Assembly (NCBI RefSeq): GCF_000381925.1
Contig: NZ_KB907307.1
Coordinates: forward strand, 620,001-684,000
Direction of reading: 5' to 3'
Source: Nocardia sp. BMG111209
Lineage (GTDB): Bacteria; Actinomycetota; Actinomycetes; Mycobacteriales; Mycobacteriaceae
Length of the DNA stretch: 64,000 bases
How positions within the stretch are numbered: position 1 is the first letter of the stretch; the number at the start of each line of letters is the position of its first letter. This document shows, piece after piece, positions 25,312 through 35,799 of this stretch. Made by a program: the position numbers and the translations under genes. The notes under the pieces were generated by a model. That model saw only the letters and a list, made by a program, of their open reading frames with translations, did no database searches and had not been told where the DNA came from.

Positions 25312-26322
25312 ATGCGAATGACCGGCGCTCGGTCGAGACAGTTGCATGTCGGGGTGGGCAGCGAGTTCGGTGAGCTTCGGTCGGTGGTGATGCGTTACGC
25401 GGGGCCGGTCACCCTGGATCTGTCCGGGTCGATCGATCCGGTGCTGGCGCGCCAGCACGAGACCAGCCGATGGAGACCGTATCTGCCTGACCGCGTGCGG
25501 GCGCAGCAGCACCGCTTCATCGAGCTGCTGCGCTGCCGCGGTGTGGAGGTCATACTCGCCGATCAGGCGCCGGCCTCCTATTGCCAGCACTACACCCGCG
25601 ACATCGGGTTCGTCGTCGACGATGTGTTCGTGGTGTCCCGGCTGCATTCGCGGCGCCGGCAACGGGAATTCGCTGGAATTCGGAACCTGGTGGAACGCAT
25701 CGAGCGTGCGGCCTACCTCGACGCGGGCACCATCGAGGGTGGGGACGTGATGCTGCATGACGGGCTGGTGCTGGTCGGACTCAGCGAAGAGAGCTCGCCG
25801 GCCGGGGTCGATGCGTTGCGTTACCAGCTCGACCGGCTCGGTAGCAGCCGCACCGTCCGGCCGATCCAGTTCGACTGCAGCGGCATCGTGCATCTGGACG
25901 ACCACTTCAACATCGTCGCTCCCGAAGTGGCGCTGGTGAATCCACGGGTGTTCGACGATGCTCAGATGCGGTGGTTCGCCGCGCAGTTCGACTTGATCCC
26001 GGTGACCGCCGCCGAGACGGTGGCCGTCGAAGTGAACGTCTTGGCGCTCGCCCCGGGGGTGGTGGTTGTCGCCGAGCGCAGTGAGCGCATCGCCGCGGAA
26101 CTCGACGCTCGCGGCATCGAGGTAATCCCGGTGGACTACTCCGAGGTGACCCGGATTCCCGGCGCGTTTCGCTGCTCGACGTTGCCGTTGGCACGCGCGA
26201 CCATCACCACCCCATCCTCACCGACTGGGCAGCAGCTCGAAGGCGGCCTCGGCGATTCGCCGACCGTTGACCTGGATCTGCAACCGGCCGGCGCCGGGGG
26301 AAAGTCTCCGGCTCGACGTTGA
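25312..26322 (+). CDS. Arginine deiminase / amidinohydrolase superfamily enzyme
   Basis: A 336-residue protein of the guanidine-modifying superfamily that includes arginine deiminase and dimethylarginine dimethylaminohydrolase. Visible active-site motifs are CQHYTRDIGFVVDD, GTIEGGDVMLHDG (acidic guanidine ligand), CSGIVHLDDHFNIV (catalytic His) and IPGAFRCSTLPLAR with the nucleophilic Cys288. The substrate cannot be read from sequence; free or peptide-bound arginine or a methylated guanidine are options. The last 35 codons overlap the end of the convergent AlkC gene and are probably not part of the fold. It points toward the TauD gene and is likely part of the biosynthetic locus. Confidence 0.8.
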   Translation: MRMTGARSRQLHVGVGSEFGELRSVVMRYAGPVTLDLSGSIDPVLARQHETSRWRPYLPDRVRAQQHRFIELLRCRGVEVILADQAPASYCQHYTRDIGFVVDDVFVVSRLHSRRRQREFAGIRNLVERIERAAYLDAGTIEGGDVMLHDGLVLVGLSEESSPAGVDALRYQLDRLGSSRTVRPIQFDCSGIVHLDDHFNIVAPEVALVNPRVFDDAQMRWFAAQFDLIPVTAAETVAVEVNVLALAPGVVVVAERSERIAAELDARGIEVIPVDYSEVTRIPGAFRCSTLPLARATITTPSSPTGQQLEGGLGDSPTVDLDLQPAGAGGKSPARR

Positions 26323-27354
26323 TCTCACCGGCTGGATCCTCGACACTGTGCGCGATTCGCCAGGAGCGAGCTCCACGGTGGTCCCTTTGAACACCACTTC
26401 TCCCTGCCCCGACCCGGGTCGCGGGTAGGTCAGGACATAGTCGATGAGGACCCGCTCCGTGGTGGTGCTGGTCGCGCGCAAGGTGCAGTCGACGCCCAGG
26501 CCGCCGCCGATGGCTACGGCCGCGGGGTCCAGACGCAGTTCGATCACCTCGATCGCAGGAGCGATCGAGAGCCCCAAGAATGCGAATGCACCCGGATACC
26601 CCCTTTTGACGAGTGTGCGCAACGCTTGCTTGACTATGAATTCCATTTCTTTGCGGCCCTGATTTCTCGAATCACGCCATCGCCCCAGCGTAGCCAGTAC
26701 CAGCTCGGGATCGGTAGCGGATATATCGTTCAGATGATTGGCGACAGACTGCGTCACGAATCGAGAATTGTCGGAGAATAGTTCGTCCAATATCGGTATT
26801 GCGGCATCTGCGGGCAGGGTGATGCGGGGTGACCATGGAAGTTTTGGGCGTGTCCCCTCACTTGCCAGTCGACGCACATGATAGTCGGGATCGTGACTCC
26901 ATTCCGCAACTGCCTTCATTGTCTCGGAGGGGAATGCGTTGAGAAAGTACCGAAGTGCATCTTCGGCGGTGAAGTGTTTGGTCATTTGCTTCAGCGCTGC
27001 GAGTGATGAATCAAGATTTTCACCGTTGCAGCCGTAGCGGGCGATGAAATCGGAGTACGGCGCGTAGGTGTAGAGACCGAAGTCGCTGCCGGTGAAGGTG
27101 GCATCGTCGTGCGGGGGCAGAGCGGCAACCAGGATTGATGTGGTGGCGCCGACATCATCAGGCAGGTATGCGGCTAAAGCATCTGCGACACAGGAGATTC
27201 GAGCTTTGAGCTCCAGCTGAGGGAGCTGCGCCACGACGGCCGTGACGAACCCCGCGGCATCGAAGCCGGGCTCAACGCGCGAGAGATCTTCGGCCAACGA
27301 CTCGACCCGTGTGGGGTTCATGGCAGATTGTTTCAGTGGAGTCGATTGGGTCAT
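26218..27354 (-). CDS. alkC: AlkC-type 3-methyladenine DNA glycosylase with a C-terminal Ig-like domain
   Basis: A 378-residue HEAT-like-repeat protein. The AlkC signature is clear: YFLNAFPSETMKAVAEWSHD, DYHVRRLASEGTRPKLPWSP, DNSRFVTQSVANHLNDIS and RDSRNQGRKEMEFIVKQALR. After about residue 270 a beta-rich domain follows (ATSTTTERVLIDYVLTYPRP ... TVELAPGESRTVSRI), matching the Ig-like tail known in some AlkC proteins. The enzyme removes N3-methylated bases from DNA. It is embedded between the deiminase-like and TauD-like genes, which fits a self-resistance role if the product of the locus alkylates DNA (inference). Confidence 0.85.
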   Translation of the reverse strand: MTQSTPLKQSAMNPTRVESLAEDLSRVEPGFDAAGFVTAVVAQLPQLELKARISCVADALAAYLPDDVGATTSILVAALPPHDDATFTGSDFGLYTYAPYSDFIARYGCNGENLDSSLAALKQMTKHFTAEDALRYFLNAFPSETMKAVAEWSHDPDYHVRRLASEGTRPKLPWSPRITLPADAAIPILDELFSDNSRFVTQSVANHLNDISATDPELVLATLGRWRDSRNQGRKEMEFIVKQALRTLVKRGYPGAFAFLGLSIAPAIEVIELRLDPAAVAIGGGLGVDCTLRATSTTTERVLIDYVLTYPRPGSGQGEVVFKGTTVELAPGESRTVSRIQPVRSTSSRRLSPGAGRLQIQVNGRRIAEAAFELLPSR

Positions 27355-28393: not shown

Positions 28394-28777
28394 TCAGGCG
28401 CCGGCGTCGACGGTTTCGATGACCGGCAGCCACTTCACGGCGTTGTCCTTGCAGGACTGGTGTACCGGGGTCAGGCCGGTGTGGTCGTCGAGGGCCATCA
28501 TCGTGATGCCCATGGCGTCGCCGTCCTCGTCGAGTGCGGCGACGAACGACCCGCAGTCGGGGCAGAACCCGCGCTTGGTCGTGGGCCAGGTGTGGAACCA
28601 GGTCGGCTCGCCACCGTCGCCGGTCCAGGCGAACGTGGCGAGCGGGAAATCGACCCAGGCCGCGACCGGACCACCGGCCAGCTTCTGGCAGTGCGGACAT
28701 GAGCACAGATGTGGCCAGTTCGCGTCGCCCTCGGCGCGGAACCGGATCCGCCCGCACAGACAGCCGCCTTCATACAT
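28394..28777 (-). CDS. GFA / CENP-V domain protein
   Basis: A 127-residue zinc protein of the GFA family. The Cys ligands are seen in GGCLCGRIRF, CSCPHCQKLAGGP and GFCPDCGSFVAA. Members are related to S-(hydroxymethyl)glutathione synthase, but most have no proven activity. It lies 144 bp downstream of the synthetase-like gene in the same direction. The intergenic sequence is also found, decayed, at 43708-43955. A link to formaldehyde from oxidative demethylation by neighbouring oxygenases is possible but speculative. Confidence 0.8.
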   Translation of the reverse strand: MYEGGCLCGRIRFRAEGDANWPHLCSCPHCQKLAGGPVAAWVDFPLATFAWTGDGGEPTWFHTWPTTKRGFCPDCGSFVAALDEDGDAMGITMMALDDHTGLTPVHQSCKDNAVKWLPVIETVDAGA

Positions 28778-28921
28778 CGACGTTCACCTTTCTCTATTCG
28801 AAACTCGTTGTCGACAAGTCGTTTTGGTGCACGCAGCGGTGACTGCTCGCCACCGCCCGGCCAGCCTAGAGCAGGGCGCCCGGTCGATCGCGGACGTGAC
28901 AGGTGTGCCGGTGCCGTGGTT

Positions 28922-29836
28922 TCAGAACATCGCGGACTGGCGGAACCGGCGGATGTCGGTGACCCCGGTGGCCGCCATGCAGAGCCGTTCGATCCCGATG
29001 CCGAGGCCGACACTGTGCACGGGTACGGCACCAGCGAGGATGGCTTTCTGCACCAGCGACTGCTCCAGATTGTAGAGGCCGATCGCGTTGGCGCGGTGGA
29101 TGAATGCTTCGGCGTCGGTCTCGTCTTCGTAGCCGTGGACGACCTCGATGCCGTCGATGAACACCTCGAACCGGTTGAGCACTGCCGCGGTGCCTTCGCG
29201 TAGTTTCGCGCACGGCTCGTTGCCGCCGAGGGGCATGTCGACCAGGAACAGCACGGTCCCGACGCTGTGTGGCTCCAGCTCGGCCGCTGTGTAAGCGTCG
29301 AGCAGGTCGTGAAGCGGCATATCGGCCGGCTTGTCGAGGTGGTGTGCGAGGGTGCCGGTGTGCGGGTCCAGGGTCTCGCGGGTGAGGTCGACCCCAAGGG
29401 TTGCGTCGAGGTGGTCGGCGACCGAGATCCGCCTCGGCTCGCCGGGATGTGCAAGGCGGACAAGACTTTCGGCGAGCTCGATGAGGTAGTCATAGCTCGA
29501 CTCGGCGGCGTACAGGTCGAGCATCTGGAATTCGGACAAGTGGGTGGCGTCGGCCGGATCATTGCGGAAGCAGGTGCCGATCTCGAAGACCCTAGGTCTG
29601 TACCCGAGCTGGTAGCGCAACGCAGGGCCGATCATGCTACGCAGCCAGCCGTCGCGGCCGCCCACGACGGCGCGGGCGCGTTTGCCGGTCATGTCGTCGG
29701 CCTGCCGGAATGTCGGCGTGCTGACCTCGGCGAAACCCTGCCCCCGCAGGAAAACCCGAATCTTGTGCAGCAGATCGGATTTGACGTCGATGGCTTCGGG
29801 TGCGGACAGCGTCACCGTGGTTGTAACGCGGCTCAT
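28922..29836 (-). CDS. Stand-alone class II aminoacyl-tRNA-synthetase-like enzyme (LysRS/EpmA type)
   Basis: A 304-residue catalytic core of a class II synthetase. Motif 1 lies near VSTPTFR. Motif 2 is RPRVFEIGTCFRNDPADATH followed by LSEFQMLDLYAA, and motif 3 is VHSVGLGIGIERLCM. The N-terminal OB-fold anticodon domain of LysRS is absent, as in EpmA/PoxA, which attaches beta-lysine to a protein. It overlaps the amidinotransferase gene by 4 bp (ATGA), so it is coupled to the operon. It could activate an amino acid as an adenylate and ligate it to the precursor peptide or a small acceptor (inference). A decayed copy of its 3' end lies at about 43850-43955. Confidence 0.8.
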   Translation of the reverse strand: MSRVTTTVTLSAPEAIDVKSDLLHKIRVFLRGQGFAEVSTPTFRQADDMTGKRARAVVGGRDGWLRSMIGPALRYQLGYRPRVFEIGTCFRNDPADATHLSEFQMLDLYAAESSYDYLIELAESLVRLAHPGEPRRISVADHLDATLGVDLTRETLDPHTGTLAHHLDKPADMPLHDLLDAYTAAELEPHSVGTVLFLVDMPLGGNEPCAKLREGTAAVLNRFEVFIDGIEVVHGYEDETDAEAFIHRANAIGLYNLEQSLVQKAILAGAVPVHSVGLGIGIERLCMAATGVTDIRRFRQSAMF

Positions 29837-30936
29837 CCGAGGTAGTCCTCGGGCCCGCCGGCACGCACCGTGTCGAGGGTGAAGCAGTGGAAGCCGCCGC
29901 CGAACAGGCGGCGGTGACGATGCTGCACCGGAATGACCGTGAGGCCCTTCTTCTCCAGGGTGCGCATCAGGTCCGGGCACAAACTGTTGACGATGACGGT
30001 GTCTTCGTCGACGGACAGGACGTTGATGTCGATGTGGCGGCTGGTCAGGTTGAACCCGAACTCGCTGTAGTCGGGGAAGGCGTCCTCGCCCTGCTCCGGC
30101 GGCACGACGATGTCCCAGCTGTGCAGCGGTTCGGGCAGCGCCTCGAGGTATTCGGCGGAGCGCAGCATCAGCAGGCCGGGCCGCAGGGGCACCACGATGG
30201 AATCGATGTGGCTGTCGGCGATGGCGTCGAGCCGGTGGAAGCGCAGTGCGGGGAAGGCTCGGCGCAGCCAGGTGTAGCCGAGTTCGTGATTGGTGTTGGC
30301 GACGTTGACCAGGACATCGCGGCCCAGACGGATGCACTGGGCGCCGTCGAAGATCAGTTCGTGCCCGAGTCCGGGCAGGACGCGGGTGTCGGTGTCATCG
30401 AGGATCGGCGCCAGGTCGATGTCCTGACCGTCGAAATAGCTGGGGTCCAGCGACCTGCGCGCCAACGCCGGCCGCGGCATCGACATCCACCCCGAGCCCG
30501 CGTTCAGATATCGGTAGAAGTGCGGTTTGAGGTAGTCGTTCTCGAACAACCTGCCGCGAATGTGCGGGGCCGTCTCCACAATGGAGTCACCGAGGATGAT
30601 CGTCTGGTCACGAACGTTCAGCGGCGGCGTTTCACGTGCCGACCACCACGGCGAGCAGATCAGAGTGCGTTCGATGATCGGCTCGGGGCGCAGAACCTGC
30701 ACTCCGGCCTCGGCGAGAGTGATGCAGAAGCCTTCGACGTCCTCTTCGAGCTCATTGACCAGGCGTGCCGGGATCGCCAGCTCCCGGCCTCCGGTAACGG
30801 CGGTGGGAGTGACGTTGTCGAGGTAGAACAGGCGGAAGCTCGAATCCGCATCGTGGGAGGTGTAGCTGTGGGGATCGCCGACGATCACCTGACGCAGCGC
30901 GGTGAACTCGTCATAGCTGTTGACTGGCAAAGACAT
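29833..30936 (-). CDS. Arginine:glycine amidinotransferase homologue
   Basis: A 367-residue protein of the AGAT family. It starts with MSLPVNSYDEFTALRQVIVGDPH. It has the conserved blocks PRPALARRSLDP, GHELIFDGAQCIRLG, ADSHIDSIVVPLRPG (catalytic His) and LFGGGFHCFTLDTVR with the nucleophile Cys351. Family enzymes move the amidino group of arginine to an amine (glycine, lysine, scyllo-inosamine and others), releasing ornithine. The acceptor here is unknown; Lys residues of the precursor peptide or an Arg-to-Orn conversion are possible. It follows the desaturase by 44 bp with an AGGA site and overlaps the synthetase-like gene. Confidence 0.88.
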   Translation of the reverse strand: MSLPVNSYDEFTALRQVIVGDPHSYTSHDADSSFRLFYLDNVTPTAVTGGRELAIPARLVNELEEDVEGFCITLAEAGVQVLRPEPIIERTLICSPWWSARETPPLNVRDQTIILGDSIVETAPHIRGRLFENDYLKPHFYRYLNAGSGWMSMPRPALARRSLDPSYFDGQDIDLAPILDDTDTRVLPGLGHELIFDGAQCIRLGRDVLVNVANTNHELGYTWLRRAFPALRFHRLDAIADSHIDSIVVPLRPGLLMLRSAEYLEALPEPLHSWDIVVPPEQGEDAFPDYSEFGFNLTSRHIDINVLSVDEDTVIVNSLCPDLMRTLEKKGLTVIPVQHRHRRLFGGGFHCFTLDTVRAGGPEDYLG

Positions 30937-30980
30937 TCGGATCCTGTTCGTGTCGTCGCCGCGGCTGCACGCGCGGGAAG

Positions 30981-32012
30981 TCAGGTGTTGGGCCGGCGTT
31001 CGGCGAGTTGGAGATGCAGCGCGCCCACGATGTCGTCGAGCACGCACGGAATATCCGGGGTCGCGCGGCGGCGGAAGAAGTACCCCGAGCACCAGGGCAC
31101 CTCGTCCCAGCGGGGGTAGTTCTCGCGCAGGACGGCGGCGGCATCTGGCAGCCGGCGCCAGCCGATGTTGGGAAACCAGTGGTGGATCGGGTGGTACATG
31201 TCGTCGTTGTGGCCGCCGAGCAGGTGCCGGGTCAGCACATGCGAGGTCCAGCCGCGGGTCTGGCTGATGACGTCGCTGTTGTGGATCAGGCCGGCATGGT
31301 TGCCCAGGTCGGTCAACCAGGTCACGATGGGGCGCACCACGATCAGCGGCAGCGCCCAGTACAACGCGAAGTCGCCGCCGTGTCCGAGCGCGGTAGCGGA
31401 TGCCATGGCCGCGGCCCAGACCGCCCACCGGGCACCACCTGCTTTCCAGCTCTCGTCGCCCGATTTGCCCACCAGGGTCACGAGACCGGATTTGGGCAGC
31501 TGCCACAGCGCGTTGCCGATGATGACGTGGAAGACGAACGCCTTCTTGTCCGGCCACGCGGAGTGGGCGCGGCGGGAGATATAGGAGCGCAGCATCGGAT
31601 CGTCGGGGCTGCCGAGCTTGGCGTGGTGGATCCGGTGCGACCGCCGATAAGGGGTGAACGGCTCACCCAGTGCGACGCAATTCAGATGCCCGATGATCGT
31701 GTTTGCGCGGCGGGAGCGAGTGAGCTTGGTGTGGATCGCCTCGTGGGTCAGGTTCGACAGCTGCCGTTGCCGGATCCCGATGTAGATCACGCACGCCACG
31801 GTCATGATCGGGTGGCCGACGATGATGCCGACGGCGGCGGCGAAGGTGGCCGCGAGGTAATCCCGGGCCAGATCGAGAGGGCCTTCTGCGCAGCCGCGGA
31901 CGCACAGGGCGTCCATGCGCGTGATCAGCTCGGGGCCGAAGGCGCGGCGAACCGGACCGGATGCACCCGCTGACGGACGTCGCTGGCTGGACTCGCGCAC
32001 CGTGATGGTCAT
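30981..32012 (-). CDS. Membrane fatty-acid-desaturase-type di-iron enzyme
   Basis: A 343-residue integral membrane protein with the three histidine boxes of the family: HEAIH, HRIHH and HPIHH, plus extra His in LTDLGNHAGLIHNSD and RHLLGGHNDD. Hydrophobic segments lie near LAATFAAAVGIIVGHPIMTV and FALYWALPLIVVRPIVTWL. Such enzymes desaturate or hydroxylate lipids; a few act on other substrates. It is the gene right after the precursor peptide. The ATG at 32012 has GGAG 9 nt upstream. Possible roles are making a modified acyl chain or acting on a membrane-bound peptide. Confidence 0.85.
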   Translation of the reverse strand: MTITVRESSQRRPSAGASGPVRRAFGPELITRMDALCVRGCAEGPLDLARDYLAATFAAAVGIIVGHPIMTVACVIYIGIRQRQLSNLTHEAIHTKLTRSRRANTIIGHLNCVALGEPFTPYRRSHRIHHAKLGSPDDPMLRSYISRRAHSAWPDKKAFVFHVIIGNALWQLPKSGLVTLVGKSGDESWKAGGARWAVWAAAMASATALGHGGDFALYWALPLIVVRPIVTWLTDLGNHAGLIHNSDVISQTRGWTSHVLTRHLLGGHNDDMYHPIHHWFPNIGWRRLPDAAAVLRENYPRWDEVPWCSGYFFRRRATPDIPCVLDDIVGALHLQLAERRPNT

Positions 32013-32162
32013 TGCTGTTCTCCACGCTGAGGTCGGGACGAGACCTGGCAGCCGTTGTCGGGTGGCTCGAGCGCGAACTGGCGGCCTCGATCGGAGTCGG
32101 AATGCATGCGGGTGCGAGGCCACGAAGCGGCAGGGGTGCGCGCCGTTGCGCGGCCCCGCACG

Positions 32163-32175
32163 GGGACTATGTCCC
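32163..32175 (-). terminator. Small hairpin directly after the precursor gene
   Basis: GGGAC-TAT-GTCCC lies 5 bp past the precursor stop codon. It could be an attenuator that leaves the precursor mRNA more abundant than that of the downstream enzymes. The stem is only 5 bp, so this is tentative. Confidence 0.35.
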
Positions 32176-32180
32176 GGACA

Positions 32181-32333
32181 TCAGGCGGCCGGGCGCACCC
32201 CTGCCTCGAGGGCGTCCGGCCGGACACCGGCCTTCAGACCGGCGTCGGGGCGCACCCCGAACTCGAGAGCGTCGGGGCGGACACCGGCCTTGAGGTCGGC
32301 GTCGGGACGGACACCGCTCTTGAGCATCGACAT
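32181..32333 (-). CDS. Putative RiPP precursor made of five GVRPDA-type repeats
   Basis: A 50-residue peptide with ATG at 32333 and TGA at 32181. AGAAGGAG lies 8 nt upstream of the ATG, one of the clearest ribosome sites in the window. After MSM, the whole chain is five units of the form L(K/E)xGVRPDA(x), starting with residues LKSGVRPDAD, LKAGVRPDA, LEFGVRPDAG, LKAGVRPDA and LEAGVRPAA. The invariant core is Gly-Val-Arg-Pro, spaced 10, 9, 10 and 9 residues; the last unit lacks Asp. There is no Cys or aromatic residue except one Phe, and no separate leader. It lies 36 bp after the di-iron oxidase gene and upstream of the desaturase on the same strand. Function as a modified peptide precursor is inferred. 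Confidence 0.75.
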   Translation of the reverse strand: MSMLKSGVRPDADLKAGVRPDALEFGVRPDAGLKAGVRPDALEAGVRPAA

Positions 32334-32369
32334 GGTGATTTCTCCTTCTTTGATGGGTTACTGCGGGAA

Positions 32370-33194
32370 TCAGGAGAGGGCGGTGGAGCGGACGGCCAGC
32401 TGCGACCACCACACCGTCATGCCCTCGAGGATCTGGAGCCAGCCGTCGACGATCTGCGGAAGGTCCAGGCCGAACAACTGGTATTCGCGGATGAACCTGG
32501 CGATGCCTTCGAGGTGGGCCCCTTCGACGCTGAGGCCGGCCACGGCCGCGGCTTCGTGGCCTTCATCCAGGTGCAGCGAGTAGTAGTAGTCCAGGTTCGG
32601 CAGCTTCGCGCCGGCGCCGACGGTGAGTTCGGCGTAGCGGTCGGTGATGGCGCGCAGCAGCACGGTTTCGTCGATCGCGACGCCTTCGGTGGCGTAGTAG
32701 CCACCGCATATCCGGCTCTGCGACGAGCCGATGACCAGCCAATCGTGCAACGACACCAGGGTCAGCGTCTCCGGTGCAGGCACATGTCCGACGACCAGCA
32801 GCCCCAGATCGGCCAACAGCGCGCCGGAATAGAGGGTGTAGTGCGCGGGCACCTTGCCGCGCTCGCCGCCCTCTTCGAGGTGGTTGCGGCGGAACTCGTG
32901 CGCCAGCTCCATACACGCGTCTTGGACCGTGTCAGCGGCCCGGCGCAGGAAATCGCTGTTGTAGCGCGCGAAAACCGACAGCTCGCGGATGTAGAGGGCG
33001 GCTTGCTCTGCGGTCAGTGTCGCCGGGGACACCTCGACGGTGATCTGCTCGAACAGTGCGGCCACCATCGGCGCCATGTGCTTGTCGACCAGGTCGTTGC
33101 CGCTGCCCTCGAATTTGTTGAGCAGGACATTGGTAATGACGGTGTTGGTCTCGGGATGCTCGACGAGATAGTGGGCGACTTTCGAGCCGGTCAT
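32370..33194 (-). CDS. Haem-oxygenase-like di-iron oxidase (HDO superfamily)
   Basis: A 274-residue helical protein of the TenA / iron-containing redox enzyme type. Candidate iron ligands are the Glu and His residues in ELAHEFRRNHLEEGGERG and VPAHYTLY, and His208-x-Asp210-x2-His213 in YSLHLDEGHEAAAV. Characterised relatives (UndA, BesC, the SznF central domain) use di-iron and oxygen for N-hydroxylation, C-C cleavage or desaturation. The start overlaps the JmjC stop by 4 bp (ATGA), so the two oxygenases are made together, and the precursor gene follows directly. N- or C-oxidation of the repeated Arg residues is a plausible but unproven role. Confidence 0.75.
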   Translation of the reverse strand: MTGSKVAHYLVEHPETNTVITNVLLNKFEGSGNDLVDKHMAPMVAALFEQITVEVSPATLTAEQAALYIRELSVFARYNSDFLRRAADTVQDACMELAHEFRRNHLEEGGERGKVPAHYTLYSGALLADLGLLVVGHVPAPETLTLVSLHDWLVIGSSQSRICGGYYATEGVAIDETVLLRAITDRYAELTVGAGAKLPNLDYYYSLHLDEGHEAAAVAGLSVEGAHLEGIARFIREYQLFGLDLPQIVDGWLQILEGMTVWWSQLAVRSTALS

Positions 33195-34501
33195 CGGGAC
33201 TCCCCGAATTCGGGTTCGGTGAGGACCTGGATGCCGCCGGTTTCGAGCAGCAGCGCCAGCGCGTCCCCTCCGAGCTCGTCGGTGATGCGCACGCTGTGAC
33301 CGGCCGCCAGCGACGCCATCGCGGCGCCCCAGGCCGGGGAGTTTGGCACGCGCAGCACCAGACCTCGCACCGCTACACCGATGTGCAAGTGCTCATCGAC
33401 ATGCGGGTCGGTGTACAGCGTGTATGGCGGTATGACGCGCAGGTGCGTGCCGCCAGCGGCGAGCGTGGTCACGGCGTCGCGCGCCGCGTCCGCTCGGACG
33501 AGGTCGTGCTCGGTGGCCTCCCAACCGCCGTTGCTGTGCAGGGTGCGCCACCTGGCCTCGATCAGCTCGGCAATCCTGGGCCCCAATTGATCGGAAACGG
33601 TAATGAGCATGTCGGTGGCCGCCGAAACGAGGGCGGCAGCGACCGGCCCCGGGCCCGCGACCAGAGGATGCATCGGTGAGGGTGTCTCGTCAGCGACGTC
33701 GATAACGGCTGCGGCCCTCAGCGATTCGGGCAGCAGCGACAGGGCCAGCATGCGCGTGTCGGAAAAGGTGTAGAGCGGAACCGCCACCGAGATCGAGAAA
33801 TCGTCTTGGACGCCGACGTGAAACACCCGCCGCGGCAGGAACAGCACATCGCCGGCCTGGAGGTCATGGCGTTCGCCGTGCTCGAGCAGTGCGGTGTAGT
33901 CGCCGAAGGTCGGCGCCCGGCCACCGGTCAGTTCCCGGTACAGGTCACCGGACCAGGTGTAGAACCGCTTGGTGCCGGGGCCGAGGTGGACCAGGAAGGC
34001 GTCTTCGTACCCCTCGTGCACTCCGAACGCCGTACCGGCATAGTTGCCGACGAAGGCGACCTGTTCGCTGCCACCGATCGGCACGCCCCATCCGGCGTGC
34101 GCGGATCCGATGAGCTCACCGAGCACAGCAGCCAATGCGGGGGAAGTGGTCTCGAGGTTGTTGATCACCAGCGAGAACCGCTGGGCGCCAATCAGTTTCC
34201 GCATCCAGGAGACGAAGTCGTCCTCGGCCCATGGAGCGGTCAGCATGGTGTCGATCACCTCGTCGCGGCGATCCTCGCCCACGTAGACGCGGGCGCGTGC
34301 GCTGGTGGGCTCACCTTCGGTGGCGGCCCGGCGCAGCCTGCGCAAACCGTCGAACACGTCGTCGGGGCCCAGGAGATCGGTCGGCACGAGACCCTTGAAC
34401 AGATAGGGCGCGACGGCGCCATCGGTCCTGGACGGGAACTGGGTCGACCAGAACTCCGGGGACGGCGGCCAGGTGACAGTGGAGTCGGTGGCTGTGGTCA
34501 T
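33191..34501 (-). CDS. JmjC/cupin-type peptidyl oxygenase, first gene of the peptide operon
   Basis: A 436-residue protein with a JmjC (cupin_4) domain at residues about 110-240. The segment FGVHEGYEDAFLVHLG holds His162 and an acidic residue, and LQAGDVLFLPRRVFHVGVQ holds His228, consistent with an Fe(II)/2-oxoglutarate site. A helical dimerisation part and a C-terminal winged-helix-like part (LVLRVPNSPAWGAAMASLAA, TDELGGDALALLLETGG) follow, as in bacterial ribosomal oxygenases. YcfD/RoxA of this family hydroxylates an arginine in L16, which makes arginine in the GVRPDA repeats a natural candidate substrate. The ATG at 34501 has a GGAAGGG site. Confidence 0.8.
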   Translation of the reverse strand: MTTATDSTVTWPPSPEFWSTQFPSRTDGAVAPYLFKGLVPTDLLGPDDVFDGLRRLRRAATEGEPTSARARVYVGEDRRDEVIDTMLTAPWAEDDFVSWMRKLIGAQRFSLVINNLETTSPALAAVLGELIGSAHAGWGVPIGGSEQVAFVGNYAGTAFGVHEGYEDAFLVHLGPGTKRFYTWSGDLYRELTGGRAPTFGDYTALLEHGERHDLQAGDVLFLPRRVFHVGVQDDFSISVAVPLYTFSDTRMLALSLLPESLRAAAVIDVADETPSPMHPLVAGPGPVAAALVSAATDMLITVSDQLGPRIAELIEARWRTLHSNGGWEATEHDLVRADAARDAVTTLAAGGTHLRVIPPYTLYTDPHVDEHLHIGVAVRGLVLRVPNSPAWGAAMASLAAGHSVRITDELGGDALALLLETGGIQVLTEPEFGESR

Positions 34502-34809: not shown

Positions 34810-35799
34810 TTGGGGACCGTGCTCAAGATGCTGCTCGACGAACGGCATCTGGCAAGCCACAAGGACTTCTGCGCCGAATACCGCAGGCACGCAGCCCAAC
34901 TCGACAGCGCCGCGACACGGGCTGATGCACCCTCACGAGCCCAGTTCTACAACTGGATGTCGGGGGACATGAAGGGCGTGCCGCAGAATCATCACCGCAG
35001 AGTCCTGGCGCGAATGTTCCCCGGATGGTCGATCCATGCCCTTTTTTCGATGGCCAATGCGGCGGCCGTCAGCCCGCACCTGGCACATGACGATCTTGTC
35101 GATGAGCGGTTGAGAACGTTCTTGGGAGCGGAGATGGCCGATCGTGGTGTCACGCTGGTCGTTCCCAGTTTCGAGCTGGCCACGAGCTCGGTCGACGCGC
35201 TGGAGGCCGCAGGCATCCCGCGTCAGCACATTTTCAGCAAGCGGGCGAGCGTATTCAACGCCGCCCACCGAATCGACGTGCCGGTCGCCCTGGCCGAAAA
35301 CGATGTCCGCGGAATGCTGTATGTAATGGCGATGGTCCAGCACCACGCCGGCATGGATGTCGAGATCCAGAGTGATCGAGATGTCGTGGCGGCGTGCGAC
35401 CGGCCCTATATTTCCTTCGGACTCAGCTCCAACGACTGCACCCACATGTACCTCGAAACCACCCGAGATCCGCTGTTCACCATCAAGGACAACCCACCTG
35501 CGGCCGGTGGATATCTCGAACACCTGGAACTGGCCGACGGAAACTCCTACAGCTCTGATGACAGCCGCAACATCGGCATCATCGCCCGCGTGCGCCCCGC
35601 ACCGCAGCCGCACCCGGACAGATACTGGTTCTTCTGCGCCGGACTCGGGCCGCACGGCACGACCGGTGCCAGTTGGTATCTGGCCAAGCACTGGGCTGCG
35701 CTCCAGGACCAGGCGGTGGACCAGGAGTTCGCGGCCGTCGTCAGCGTGCGCACCTACAGCGATCAGACCGCCACACTCGAGCACCTGCTAACCCGCTGA
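34810..35799 (+). CDS. Probable DNA-binding regulator with a ligand-sensing domain
   Basis: A 329-residue protein. The N-terminus looks like a helix-turn-helix region (KDFCAEYRRHAAQLD, SRAQFYNWMSGDMKGVPQNH). The rest contains GVTLVVPSFELATSSVDALE, SFGLSSNDCTHMYLETTRDP and RYWFFCAGLGPHGTTGASWY, which suggests an alpha/beta nucleotide- or sugar-sensing domain seen in actinobacterial regulators next to small kinases. A TTG at 34810 has AAGGGGGAC upstream; a GTG at 34819 or an ATG at 34828 are alternatives. It is divergent from the peptide operon and 16 bp upstream of the PfkB gene. It may regulate either. Confidence 0.6.
   Translation: MGTVLKMLLDERHLASHKDFCAEYRRHAAQLDSAATRADAPSRAQFYNWMSGDMKGVPQNHHRRVLARMFPGWSIHALFSMANAAAVSPHLAHDDLVDERLRTFLGAEMADRGVTLVVPSFELATSSVDALEAAGIPRQHIFSKRASVFNAAHRIDVPVALAENDVRGMLYVMAMVQHHAGMDVEIQSDRDVVAACDRPYISFGLSSNDCTHMYLETTRDPLFTIKDNPPAAGGYLEHLELADGNSYSSDDSRNIGIIARVRPAPQPHPDRYWFFCAGLGPHGTTGASWYLAKHWAALQDQAVDQEFAAVVSVRTYSDQTATLEHLLTR

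What the first reader, a model, noticed from the sequence alone, without database searches (positions are those of the whole stretch)
28394..34501. Putative new RiPP system with a leaderless five-repeat GVRPDA precursor
A 50-residue gene (32181-32333) with a very good ribosome site codes for almost nothing but five units L(K/E)xGVRPDA. It lies inside a tight minus-strand operon with a JmjC oxygenase, a di-iron HDO enzyme, a membrane desaturase, an amidinotransferase and a LysRS/EpmA-like synthetase. I know of no described RiPP class with this enzyme set or with such a precursor. The repeats, their register and the ribosome site are seen directly; that the peptide is the enzymes' substrate is inferred from gene order.
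Basis: partly seen in the sequence, partly recalled or inferred. Interest (0 to 1): 0.95.

Follow-up and report, generated by a model that had tools for sequence, protein, structure and literature searches.

The report
Repeat-peptide factory for reactive arginine toxin
A tiny bacterial gene encodes a peptide made of five near-identical arginine-containing blocks, the same block recurs with the same oxidative enzymes in distantly related bacteria, and these enzymes likely turn each block into a DNA-damaging natural product of a kind we found no report of.

Summary
The window (a Nocardia-type genome) encodes a 50-residue peptide of five L-[K/E]-x-G-V-R-P-[D/A]-A units behind an AAGGAG site. In 26 of 26 related clusters read (Nocardia, Streptomyces, Kitasatospora, Peterkaempfera, Amycolatopsis, Xenorhabdus, Parvularcula, Nostoc) a same-strand repeat gene of 4-10 units K-x-G-[V/M/I]-R-P-[D/G]-A sits in the JmjC/HDO gene group, although its slot changes; in 18 of 18 JmjC relatives outside such groups none was found. 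The JmjC enzyme resembles YcfD, the ribosomal-protein arginyl hydroxylase, but its iron-ligand Asp/Glu is Gly (HxG, the halogenase mark) in 120 of 120 listed proteins, whereas the 18 outside relatives read HxE/HxD. A linked AlkC DNA glycosylase (18 of 21 actinobacterial clusters; Tag in one Nostoc cluster) points to a DNA-alkylating product. The EpmA-like ligase has lost its lysine-type pocket (16 of 16 aligned). Best reading: a leaderless multi-core RiPP pathway whose JmjC and HDO enzymes likely oxidise or halogenate the unit arginine, giving an electrophile against which AlkC/Tag protects. Substrate role, chemistry and product are untested.

The parts
32181..32333 (-). Leaderless multi-core precursor gene, 50 aa, five L[K/E]xGVRP(D/A)A units
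   Evidence: same unit in 26 of 26 related clusters
32342..32347 (-). Ribosome binding site AAGGAG of the precursor gene
32298..32324 (-). Unit 1 LKSGVRPDA
32268..32294 (-). Unit 2 LKAGVRPDA
32241..32267 (-). Unit 3 LEFGVRPDA (K replaced by E)
32211..32237 (-). Unit 4 LKAGVRPDA
32184..32210 (-). Unit 5 LEAGVRPAA (K replaced by E, D replaced by A)
33191..34501 (-). JmjC_2 enzyme, YcfD-like fold, iron ligand Asp/Glu replaced by Gly164 (HxG)
32370..33194 (-). DUF3865 haem-oxygenase-like dimetal oxidase (HDO)
30981..32012 (-). Membrane desaturase/hydroxylase, distant relative of GntB arginine hydroxylase
   Evidence: PF00487 8.1e-30; NF041365 122 bits, below cut-off 380
29833..30936 (-). Amidinotransferase (StrB1/AGAT family), Asp/His/Cys motifs kept
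   Evidence: 1bwd E 6.8e-42 with alignment
28922..29836 (-). EpmA/LysRS-like ligase with altered amino-acid pocket
   Evidence: TIGR00462 96 bits, below cut-off 286.9; pocket residues changed in 16/16 aligned
28394..28777 (-). GFA-family protein (formaldehyde/zinc type)
   Evidence: PF04828 1.3e-16; a match in 26/26 clusters, only a short piece in L004, L007 and L014
27491..28339 (+). TauD-type Fe/2OG oxygenase
   Evidence: PF02668 3.4e-64; 19/21 actinobacterial clusters
26218..27354 (-). AlkC alkylpurine DNA glycosylase, probable self-protection
   Evidence: 5vi0 E 6.7e-57; 18/21 actinobacterial clusters; Nocardia association
25312..26322 (+). Arginine-deiminase/DDAH-like enzyme
   Evidence: PF02274 1.7e-23; 17/21 actinobacterial clusters
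34810..35799 (+). Divergent gene conserved beside three other Nocardia clusters, function unknown
   Evidence: no Pfam hit; L004, L005, L006

Best explanation
The gene encodes a repeat peptide whose K-x-G-[V/M/I]-R-P-[D/G]-A unit is kept in the same gene group as a JmjC/HDO enzyme pair in 26 of 26 related clusters, and it is likely a leaderless multi-core RiPP precursor whose unit arginines would be halogenated or hydroxylated by the JmjC enzyme, oxidised further by the HDO enzyme and released as an electrophilic, DNA-alkylating product. Shown by sequence or model: the repeats, their conservation and changing place in the operon, the YcfD-like fold of the JmjC model, the loss of its Asp/Glu ligand (HxG), the HDO fold with invariant E/H residues, the AlkC link, the changed pocket of the EpmA-like ligase. 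Inferred: (1) the short unit is itself the recognition element, as no leader exists; (2) the JmjC enzyme acts on the unit Arg, because its closest structural relatives hydroxylate an Arg preceded by Val in uL16 and the unit reads G-V/M-R-P; (3) HxG makes room for a halide, so halogenation is the more likely first step; (4) the HDO performs a second oxidation (C-C cleavage, desaturation or N-oxidation), the GFA protein perhaps handling formaldehyde or zinc; (5) in actinobacteria the GntB-like, amidinotransferase, deiminase-like and TauD enzymes tailor the guanidine part; (6) the EpmA-like ligase (not matched in one Nostoc cluster, which has an A-T-reductase protein) activates the carboxylate of an arginine-like residue with a masked or absent alpha-amine; (7) AlkC or Tag removes alkylated purines from the producer's DNA.
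Against: No modified peptide or product is known. No protease or exporter common to all clusters was recognised. K is as constant as R (144 of 146 units), so lysine could be the target; G, R and P are fixed by the search pattern, and pieces without R exist (GMTPD at the start of several Streptomyces precursors, LGTTVVT in L011). BipG hydroxylates Orn but showed no activity on Arg. No AlkC or Tag match was found in L004, L007, L012 or in the Xenorhabdus, Parvularcula and N. commune stretches. The metal site was judged from alignment only; model coordinates could not be inspected, and E166 or H172 (both invariant) might bind metal. GntB, AGAT and deiminase homologues mostly act on free amino acids (recalled).
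Confidence: 0.55

Rival explanations
1. Scaffold model: the repeat lysines are acceptors. The EpmA-like enzyme, by analogy with EF-P modification, loads an amino acid onto each unit Lys; JmjC and HDO then modify the appended residue, which is finally cut off, so that the peptide is a carrier rather than the product.
For: K two residues before the unit Gly in 144 of 146 units of the 26 clusters; EpmA-like gene in 25 of 26 clusters; LysE-type translocator domain downstream in both Xenorhabdus clusters.
Against: Window units 3 and 5 have E and two L011 units have Q in place of K; the lysine-type pocket of EpmA is changed in 16/16; the N. carneum cluster keeps the repeats without an EpmA match in the stretch read.
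Confidence: 0.2
2. The enzymes make a small molecule from free arginine/lysine and the repeat peptide is an accessory (binding decoy, immunity or carrier peptide) that is never modified.
For: GntB, AGAT and deiminase families usually act on free amino acids (recalled; family hits); no leader or common protease recognised.
Against: Peptide conserved with its enzymes across distant bacteria; JmjC model closest to protein arginyl hydroxylases; a multi-copy Arg unit fits a substrate.
Confidence: 0.15
3. Hydroxylation, not halogenation: the JmjC enzyme uses E166, H172 or water in place of the missing carboxylate and acts as an ordinary peptide hydroxylase, or it is a non-catalytic peptide-binding subunit for the HDO.
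For: E166 and H172 invariant in 40/40; the characterised RiPP JmjC enzyme BipG is a hydroxylase.
Against: E and H at the corresponding offsets also occur in the 18 outside relatives that keep HxE/HxD, so they do not look like specific replacements; the presumed 2OG-binding Lys178 is kept in 39/40 (R in one).
Confidence: 0.3
4. Regulatory leader peptide (arginine attenuator) for the downstream operon.
For: Small ORF among biosynthesis genes with an Arg in each unit.
Against: Position in the operon varies and up to 10 units occur; protein-level conservation with free synonymous change; the simple scan shows no terminator-like site between peptide and desaturase.
Confidence: 0.02

Closest known systems
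YcfD/RoxA ribosomal oxygenase (uL16 Arg81 3-hydroxylase)
   Same: Best structural match over 338-362 residues; both His ligands and the 2OG-binding basic residue align (roles recalled); substrate Arg preceded by Val as in GVRP.
   Different: 19% identity; HxD is HxG; encoded with a repeat peptide and an HDO; substrate here untested.
BipG, JmjC gamma-ornithine hydroxylase of the biphenomycin RiPP pathway
   Same: JmjC enzyme encoded with a ribosomal precursor and acting on a basic side chain inside it (PMC12707348 section 9 read; related BpmG and PbsQ, passages of PMC12257519).
   Different: Precursor core is F-R-F; partners named in the passages are MNIO, B12-rSAM, HExxH and other enzymes, no HDO or EpmA-like gene among them; hydroxylates Orn, not Arg; its sequence was not compared here.
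BesD/BesC (HxG Fe/2OG lysine halogenase plus HDO C-C lyase)
   Same: HxG Fe/2OG enzyme paired with an HDO (BesD recalled); [quoted passage not shown]
   Different: Bes enzymes act on free lysine (recalled); our JmjC has a protein-hydroxylase fold and a repeat peptide partner.
Mangotoxin mbo cluster (MboA HDO, MboE AGAT-like deiminase)
   Same: HDO oxidises Arg inside a peptide; an enzyme annotated as amidinotransferase deiminates that Arg (PMC13185094 parts 1-2 of 6).
   Different: Tripeptide made by ATP-grasp ligases, not ribosomal; no JmjC or repeat gene in the parts read.
SznF (streptozotocin)
   Different: Fused domains, free N-methylarginine substrate (recalled); our JmjC matches YcfD best.
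EpmA (EF-P lysyltransferase)
   Same: LysRS-type class II homology, two aligned arginines kept in 17/17.
   Different: Lysine-pocket residues changed in 16/16; below the TIGR00462 cut-off.
DNA-glycosylase self-resistance (YtkR2/AlkD, AlkZ)
   Same: DNA glycosylase gene inside a biosynthetic cluster (starts of abstracts).
   Different: Those abstracts name AlkD- and AlkZ-type enzymes; in the passages of PMC9040887 shown AlkC is a comparison enzyme, not a cluster gene.
Multi-core RiPPs and pheganomycin-type peptide ligation (recalled)
   Same: Repeated cores in one precursor; amidinotransferase next to a ribosomal peptide (recalled).
   Different: Not compared by any search.

Membership tests
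RiPP (any class) | Genetically encoded precursor conserved with modifying-type enzymes | tested here: met
   26/26 clusters
RiPP (any class) | Post-translational modification of the peptide | not testable with these tools
   needs mass spectrometry
RiPP (any class) | N-terminal leader distinct from core (usual, not universal; recalled) | tested here: not met
   first unit starts at residue 4-5 in the Nocardia precursors listed
RiPP (any class) | RRE-type peptide-binding domain | tested here: inconclusive
   C-terminal strands 362-368, 373-378, 381-386 then helices 389-399, 413-420 of the JmjC model recall the RRE order; RRE-like domains fused to PF08007 are reported (passage of PMC12710340); domain not searched alone
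RiPP (any class) | Maturation protease or exporter in the cluster | tested here: inconclusive
   LysE-type fusion in Xenorhabdus, MATE-like ORF by eye in Parvularcula; none common to all recognised
YcfD-type JmjC arginyl hydroxylase | Fold | tested here: met
YcfD-type JmjC arginyl hydroxylase | HxD/E...H iron triad | tested here: not met
   HxG in 120/120 listed
Fe/2OG halogenase | HxG/A in place of HxD/E | tested here: met
   motif meaning from passages of PMC12871659
Fe/2OG halogenase | Halogen transfer | not testable with these tools
   needs assay with chloride/bromide
HDO superfamily | Haem-oxygenase-like fold | tested here: met
HDO superfamily | 3-His/3-carboxylate-type ligand set | tested here: inconclusive
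   candidate E/H residues invariant 19/19; geometry not inspected
EpmA (EF-P lysine aminoacylase) | NCBIfam TIGR00462 cut-off and lysine-type pocket | tested here: not met
   96 of 286.9 bits; pocket changed 16/16
GntB arginine gamma-hydroxylase | NCBIfam NF041365 cut-off | tested here: not met
   122 of 380 bits
Amidinotransferase (StrB1/AGAT) | Catalytic Asp/His/Cys motifs | tested here: met
   FDGA, SHIDS, GGFHC align with 1bwd; roles recalled
AlkC glycosylase | Full-length homology to solved AlkC | tested here: met
   5vi0 E 6.7e-57, residues 5-376 of 380; activity untested

The most novel reading that the evidence does not exclude
A new RiPP class: a leaderless peptide of 4-10 tandem K-x-G-V/M-R-P units is halogenated on every arginine by a JmjC-fold, YcfD-derived HxG halogenase, converted by a partner dimetal HDO into a DNA-alkylating arginine warhead, and released and capped by a LysRS paralogue retuned from lysine to an arginine-like acid, with AlkC or Tag glycosylase as self-resistance. 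It would be the first ribosomally encoded DNA alkylator and the first peptide-arginine halogenase in the literature we could search.
Probability: 0.3. Interest if true: 0.95.

Novelty: new variant of a known kind. Interest (0 to 1): 0.87.

Why it matters
It would add a RiPP class whose precursor is little more than short repeats, found in Actinomycetota, Proteobacteria and Cyanobacteriota and on plasmids of Streptomyces and Nostoc, with an enzyme set not found together in the papers searched. It offers a JmjC-fold enzyme with a halogenase-type iron site that probably acts on a peptide side chain, an EpmA/LysRS paralogue with a rebuilt pocket, and a DNA-repair marker (AlkC/Tag) that predicts a genotoxic product. 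The small Nostoc and Parvularcula core (peptide, JmjC, HDO, GFA) makes it directly testable in laboratory E. coli.

Tried and rejected
Precursor homologues by protein search: 29 candidates, none at E<=1. Clazamycin as product: recalled as an Arg-derived chlorinated guanidine, but passages of PMC7871033 and PMC10706944 describe an iminopyrrolizinone; dropped. Anti-phage defence: no PADLOC hit for 7 proteins. Attenuator: no terminator-like site between peptide and desaturase in the simple scan. Outside JmjC genes: neighbours of 5 of 18 loci read, no repeat peptide or shared partner seen. Profile search of JmjC against PDB by sequence gave 5 weak, partial hits, one of them R. marinus YcfD at E 0.036, so the YcfD relation rests on the predicted structure and a 19%-identity alignment. 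Genome G858: desaturase without a repeat upstream, but the contig ends there; undecided. Fisher tests for AlkC in Nocardia (any AlkC p=5e-7; close AlkC p=5e-10) treat genomes as independent, use 148 genomes for AlkC against 150 for the cluster, and count G1201 as cluster-positive without AlkC although it may be one of the two not drawn; support, not proof. Of 12 plasmid records with an HDO match 4 were opened (H1, H3, H11, H12).

Recalled, from no call: residue numbers and roles in LysRS, EpmA, YcfD, StrB1 and SznF; the D235 rule for NRPS A domains (in the N. carneum A-T-R protein the stretch aligned to the FDGS of LgrA is a gap); the Bes, Szn and pheganomycin pathways beyond quoted passages; phylum names for Xenorhabdus and Parvularcula; that the window's genus is Nocardia is inferred from the named closest proteins.


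Full report
Observation. The minus-strand ORF 32181-32333 encodes 50 residues with five L-[K/E]-x-G-V-R-P-[D/A]-A units, preceded by AAGGAG. On the same strand lie JmjC (33191-34501), HDO (32370-33194), a membrane desaturase (ATG at 32012), an amidinotransferase (29833-30936), an EpmA/LysRS-like ligase (ATG at 29836, overlapping the previous stop) and a GFA protein (28394-28777). The amidinotransferase has no Pfam hit but matches StrB1 structure 1bwd at 6.8e-42 with the Asp/His/Cys motifs aligned.

Conservation. A scan of GTDB genomes with the JmjC alignment gave 40 loci. In 22 of them (L004-L025) HDO, GFA and EpmA-like matches lie near JmjC (the GFA match is a short piece in L004, L007 and L014), and all 22 carry a small repeat ORF. 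The other 18 (L026-L043, Bacteroidota by most record titles, JmjC 25-33% identical, stretches of 3.7-21 kb) show neither the partner genes nor the repeats. Four plasmid records opened out of 12 with an HDO match, two Streptomyces and two Nostoc, also carry the repeats. So 26 of 26 clusters have it, with 4-10 units each and 146 in all. Among 150 Nocardia genomes 7 have the desaturase and all 7 the peptide; among 392 genomes of the genus of G595 (whose best match is identical to the S. violens query) 5 have the desaturase and 4 the peptide, the fifth being cut by the contig end. Several of these are the same strains as.

Unit. Of the 146 units 144 have K two residues before the Gly and 2 (L011) have Q; this window has E in 2 of its 5 units. 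In an earlier count of 133 pattern-found units of 23 distinct peptides the residue after Gly is M 85, V 41, I 4, other 3, and the one after Pro is D 112, G 15, other 6; 4 of the 133 (S in place of K) lie upstream of the likely start codon. G, R and P are fixed by the search pattern, so their constancy is not evidence by itself, and pieces without R exist (GMTPD at the start of several Streptomyces precursors, LGTTVVT in L011). Fixed residues use different synonymous codons. The gene keeps the strand of JmjC but changes place: after HDO in Nocardia, before the desaturase in Streptomyces and kin, before JmjC in Xenorhabdus, Parvularcula and Nostoc, 62-182 bases from the nearest of these genes. 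This argues for a function with these enzymes, not for a leader of one downstream gene.

Ligase. In 16/16 EpmA-like proteins aligned with E. coli EpmA (16 of the 25 available) the residues at E78, E116, N247, F249 and E251 are G/A, D, H, Y and D, while R100 and R303 remain. The presumed alpha-amine contact (E78, role recalled) is lost and both side-chain acids are one carbon shorter, which fits a bulkier basic group such as guanidine and a masked alpha-amine; this is inference. In the N. carneum stretch no EpmA match was found and an A-T-reductase protein is present, whose A domain shows a gap where LgrA has the FDGS stretch with the alpha-amine-binding Asp (role recalled).

Self-protection. 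The protein at 26218-27354 is an AlkC glycosylase (5vi0, E 6.7e-57, residues 5-376), matched in 18 of 21 actinobacterial clusters; not in L004 (GFA piece only, then no further cluster gene matched), L007 (contig end) or L012 (flank present, so probably a real absence). It is the only match in this genome. Of 148 Nocardia genomes 12 have an AlkC match; the 6 close ones (58-100% identity; 5 on the same contig within 4 kb of the desaturase, one on another contig) are in cluster genomes, the 6 distant ones (35-41%) are not; the seventh cluster genome, G1201, shows none or was not drawn. A Tag 3-methyladenine glycosylase follows the A-T-reductase gene in N. carneum. No AlkC or Tag was matched in the Xenorhabdus, Parvularcula and N. 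commune stretches. Many Streptomyces clusters add a Na+/H+-exchanger-type protein and a nitroreductase.

Mechanism and certainty. I commit to a leaderless multi-core pathway: repeat peptide, JmjC halogenation or hydroxylation of the unit Arg, HDO oxidation, tailoring of the guanidine in actinobacteria, carboxylate activation by the ligase, release as a reactive product, AlkC/Tag protection. My odds: peptide and enzymes work together 0.85; Arg as target 0.6; halogenation 0.45; DNA-alkylating product 0.55. The Lys-scaffold model is the best rival for the peptide's role.

Literature. Searches for the motif letters, for EpmA/JmjC/RiPP, for HDO/halogenase/amidinotransferase/precursor peptide, for DUF3865, for JmjC halogenases and for DNA-alkylating RiPPs listed no paper on this system in the open-licence library; most listed papers were seen as listings only, those cited with a call as passages or sections. 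Subscription papers are not covered.

Noticed in passing
L007:5733-8013 (Nocardia vaccinii): Long array of short direct repeats whose frames read SSPRARGA / DHPRVRGEH / IIPACAGST, looking like a CRISPR array about 2 kb upstream of the cluster.
   Followed up: no
L045:8444-8617 (Nostoc carneum plasmid): Four intact GLKTGVRPD units followed by a fifth that departs from the motif (GLKNWCSPRRVKI), as if the array is decaying.
   Followed up: no
L013, L014, L015, L020, in frame upstream of the likely precursor start: A degenerate extra piece (STG[V/M]RPRHG / RPHHG) lies upstream of the likely start codon; several Streptomyces precursors also begin with a half-unit GMTPDTGLK.
   Followed up: no
L024:4175-6461 and L046:13871-16152: A PLP ornithine/arginine-decarboxylase-like gene and an IPNS-like 2OG oxygenase are shared by the Parvularcula and Nostoc commune clusters (43% and 42% identical) and were not matched in the actinobacterial ones.
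   Followed up: partly
L023:5007-6608 and L025:5567-7177: In both Xenorhabdus clusters the ligase is followed by a LysE-type translocator fused to a solute-binding domain.
   Followed up: partly
G026:C7:48858-49998: The AlkC gene of this cluster genome appears in two overlapping open pieces, possibly a broken or mis-assembled copy.
   Followed up: no
L012:5903-6767: The EpmA-like match is in two adjoining pieces, possibly a frame change in this assembly; AlkC is also missing from this cluster.
   Followed up: no
window:34810-35799: Divergently transcribed 329-aa protein without Pfam match, conserved beside three other Nocardia clusters; possible regulator.
   Followed up: no
L026-L043: Stand-alone JmjC relatives, mostly from Bacteroidota, with HxE/HxD sites: an uncharacterised family that is probably the nearest non-cluster kin.
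   Followed up: partly
L027:5424-5934 (Tenacibaculum): Two tandem small ORFs with near-identical N-termini ending in KKEQK-INGG, like double-glycine leader peptides, about 4 kb from the stand-alone JmjC gene.
   Followed up: no
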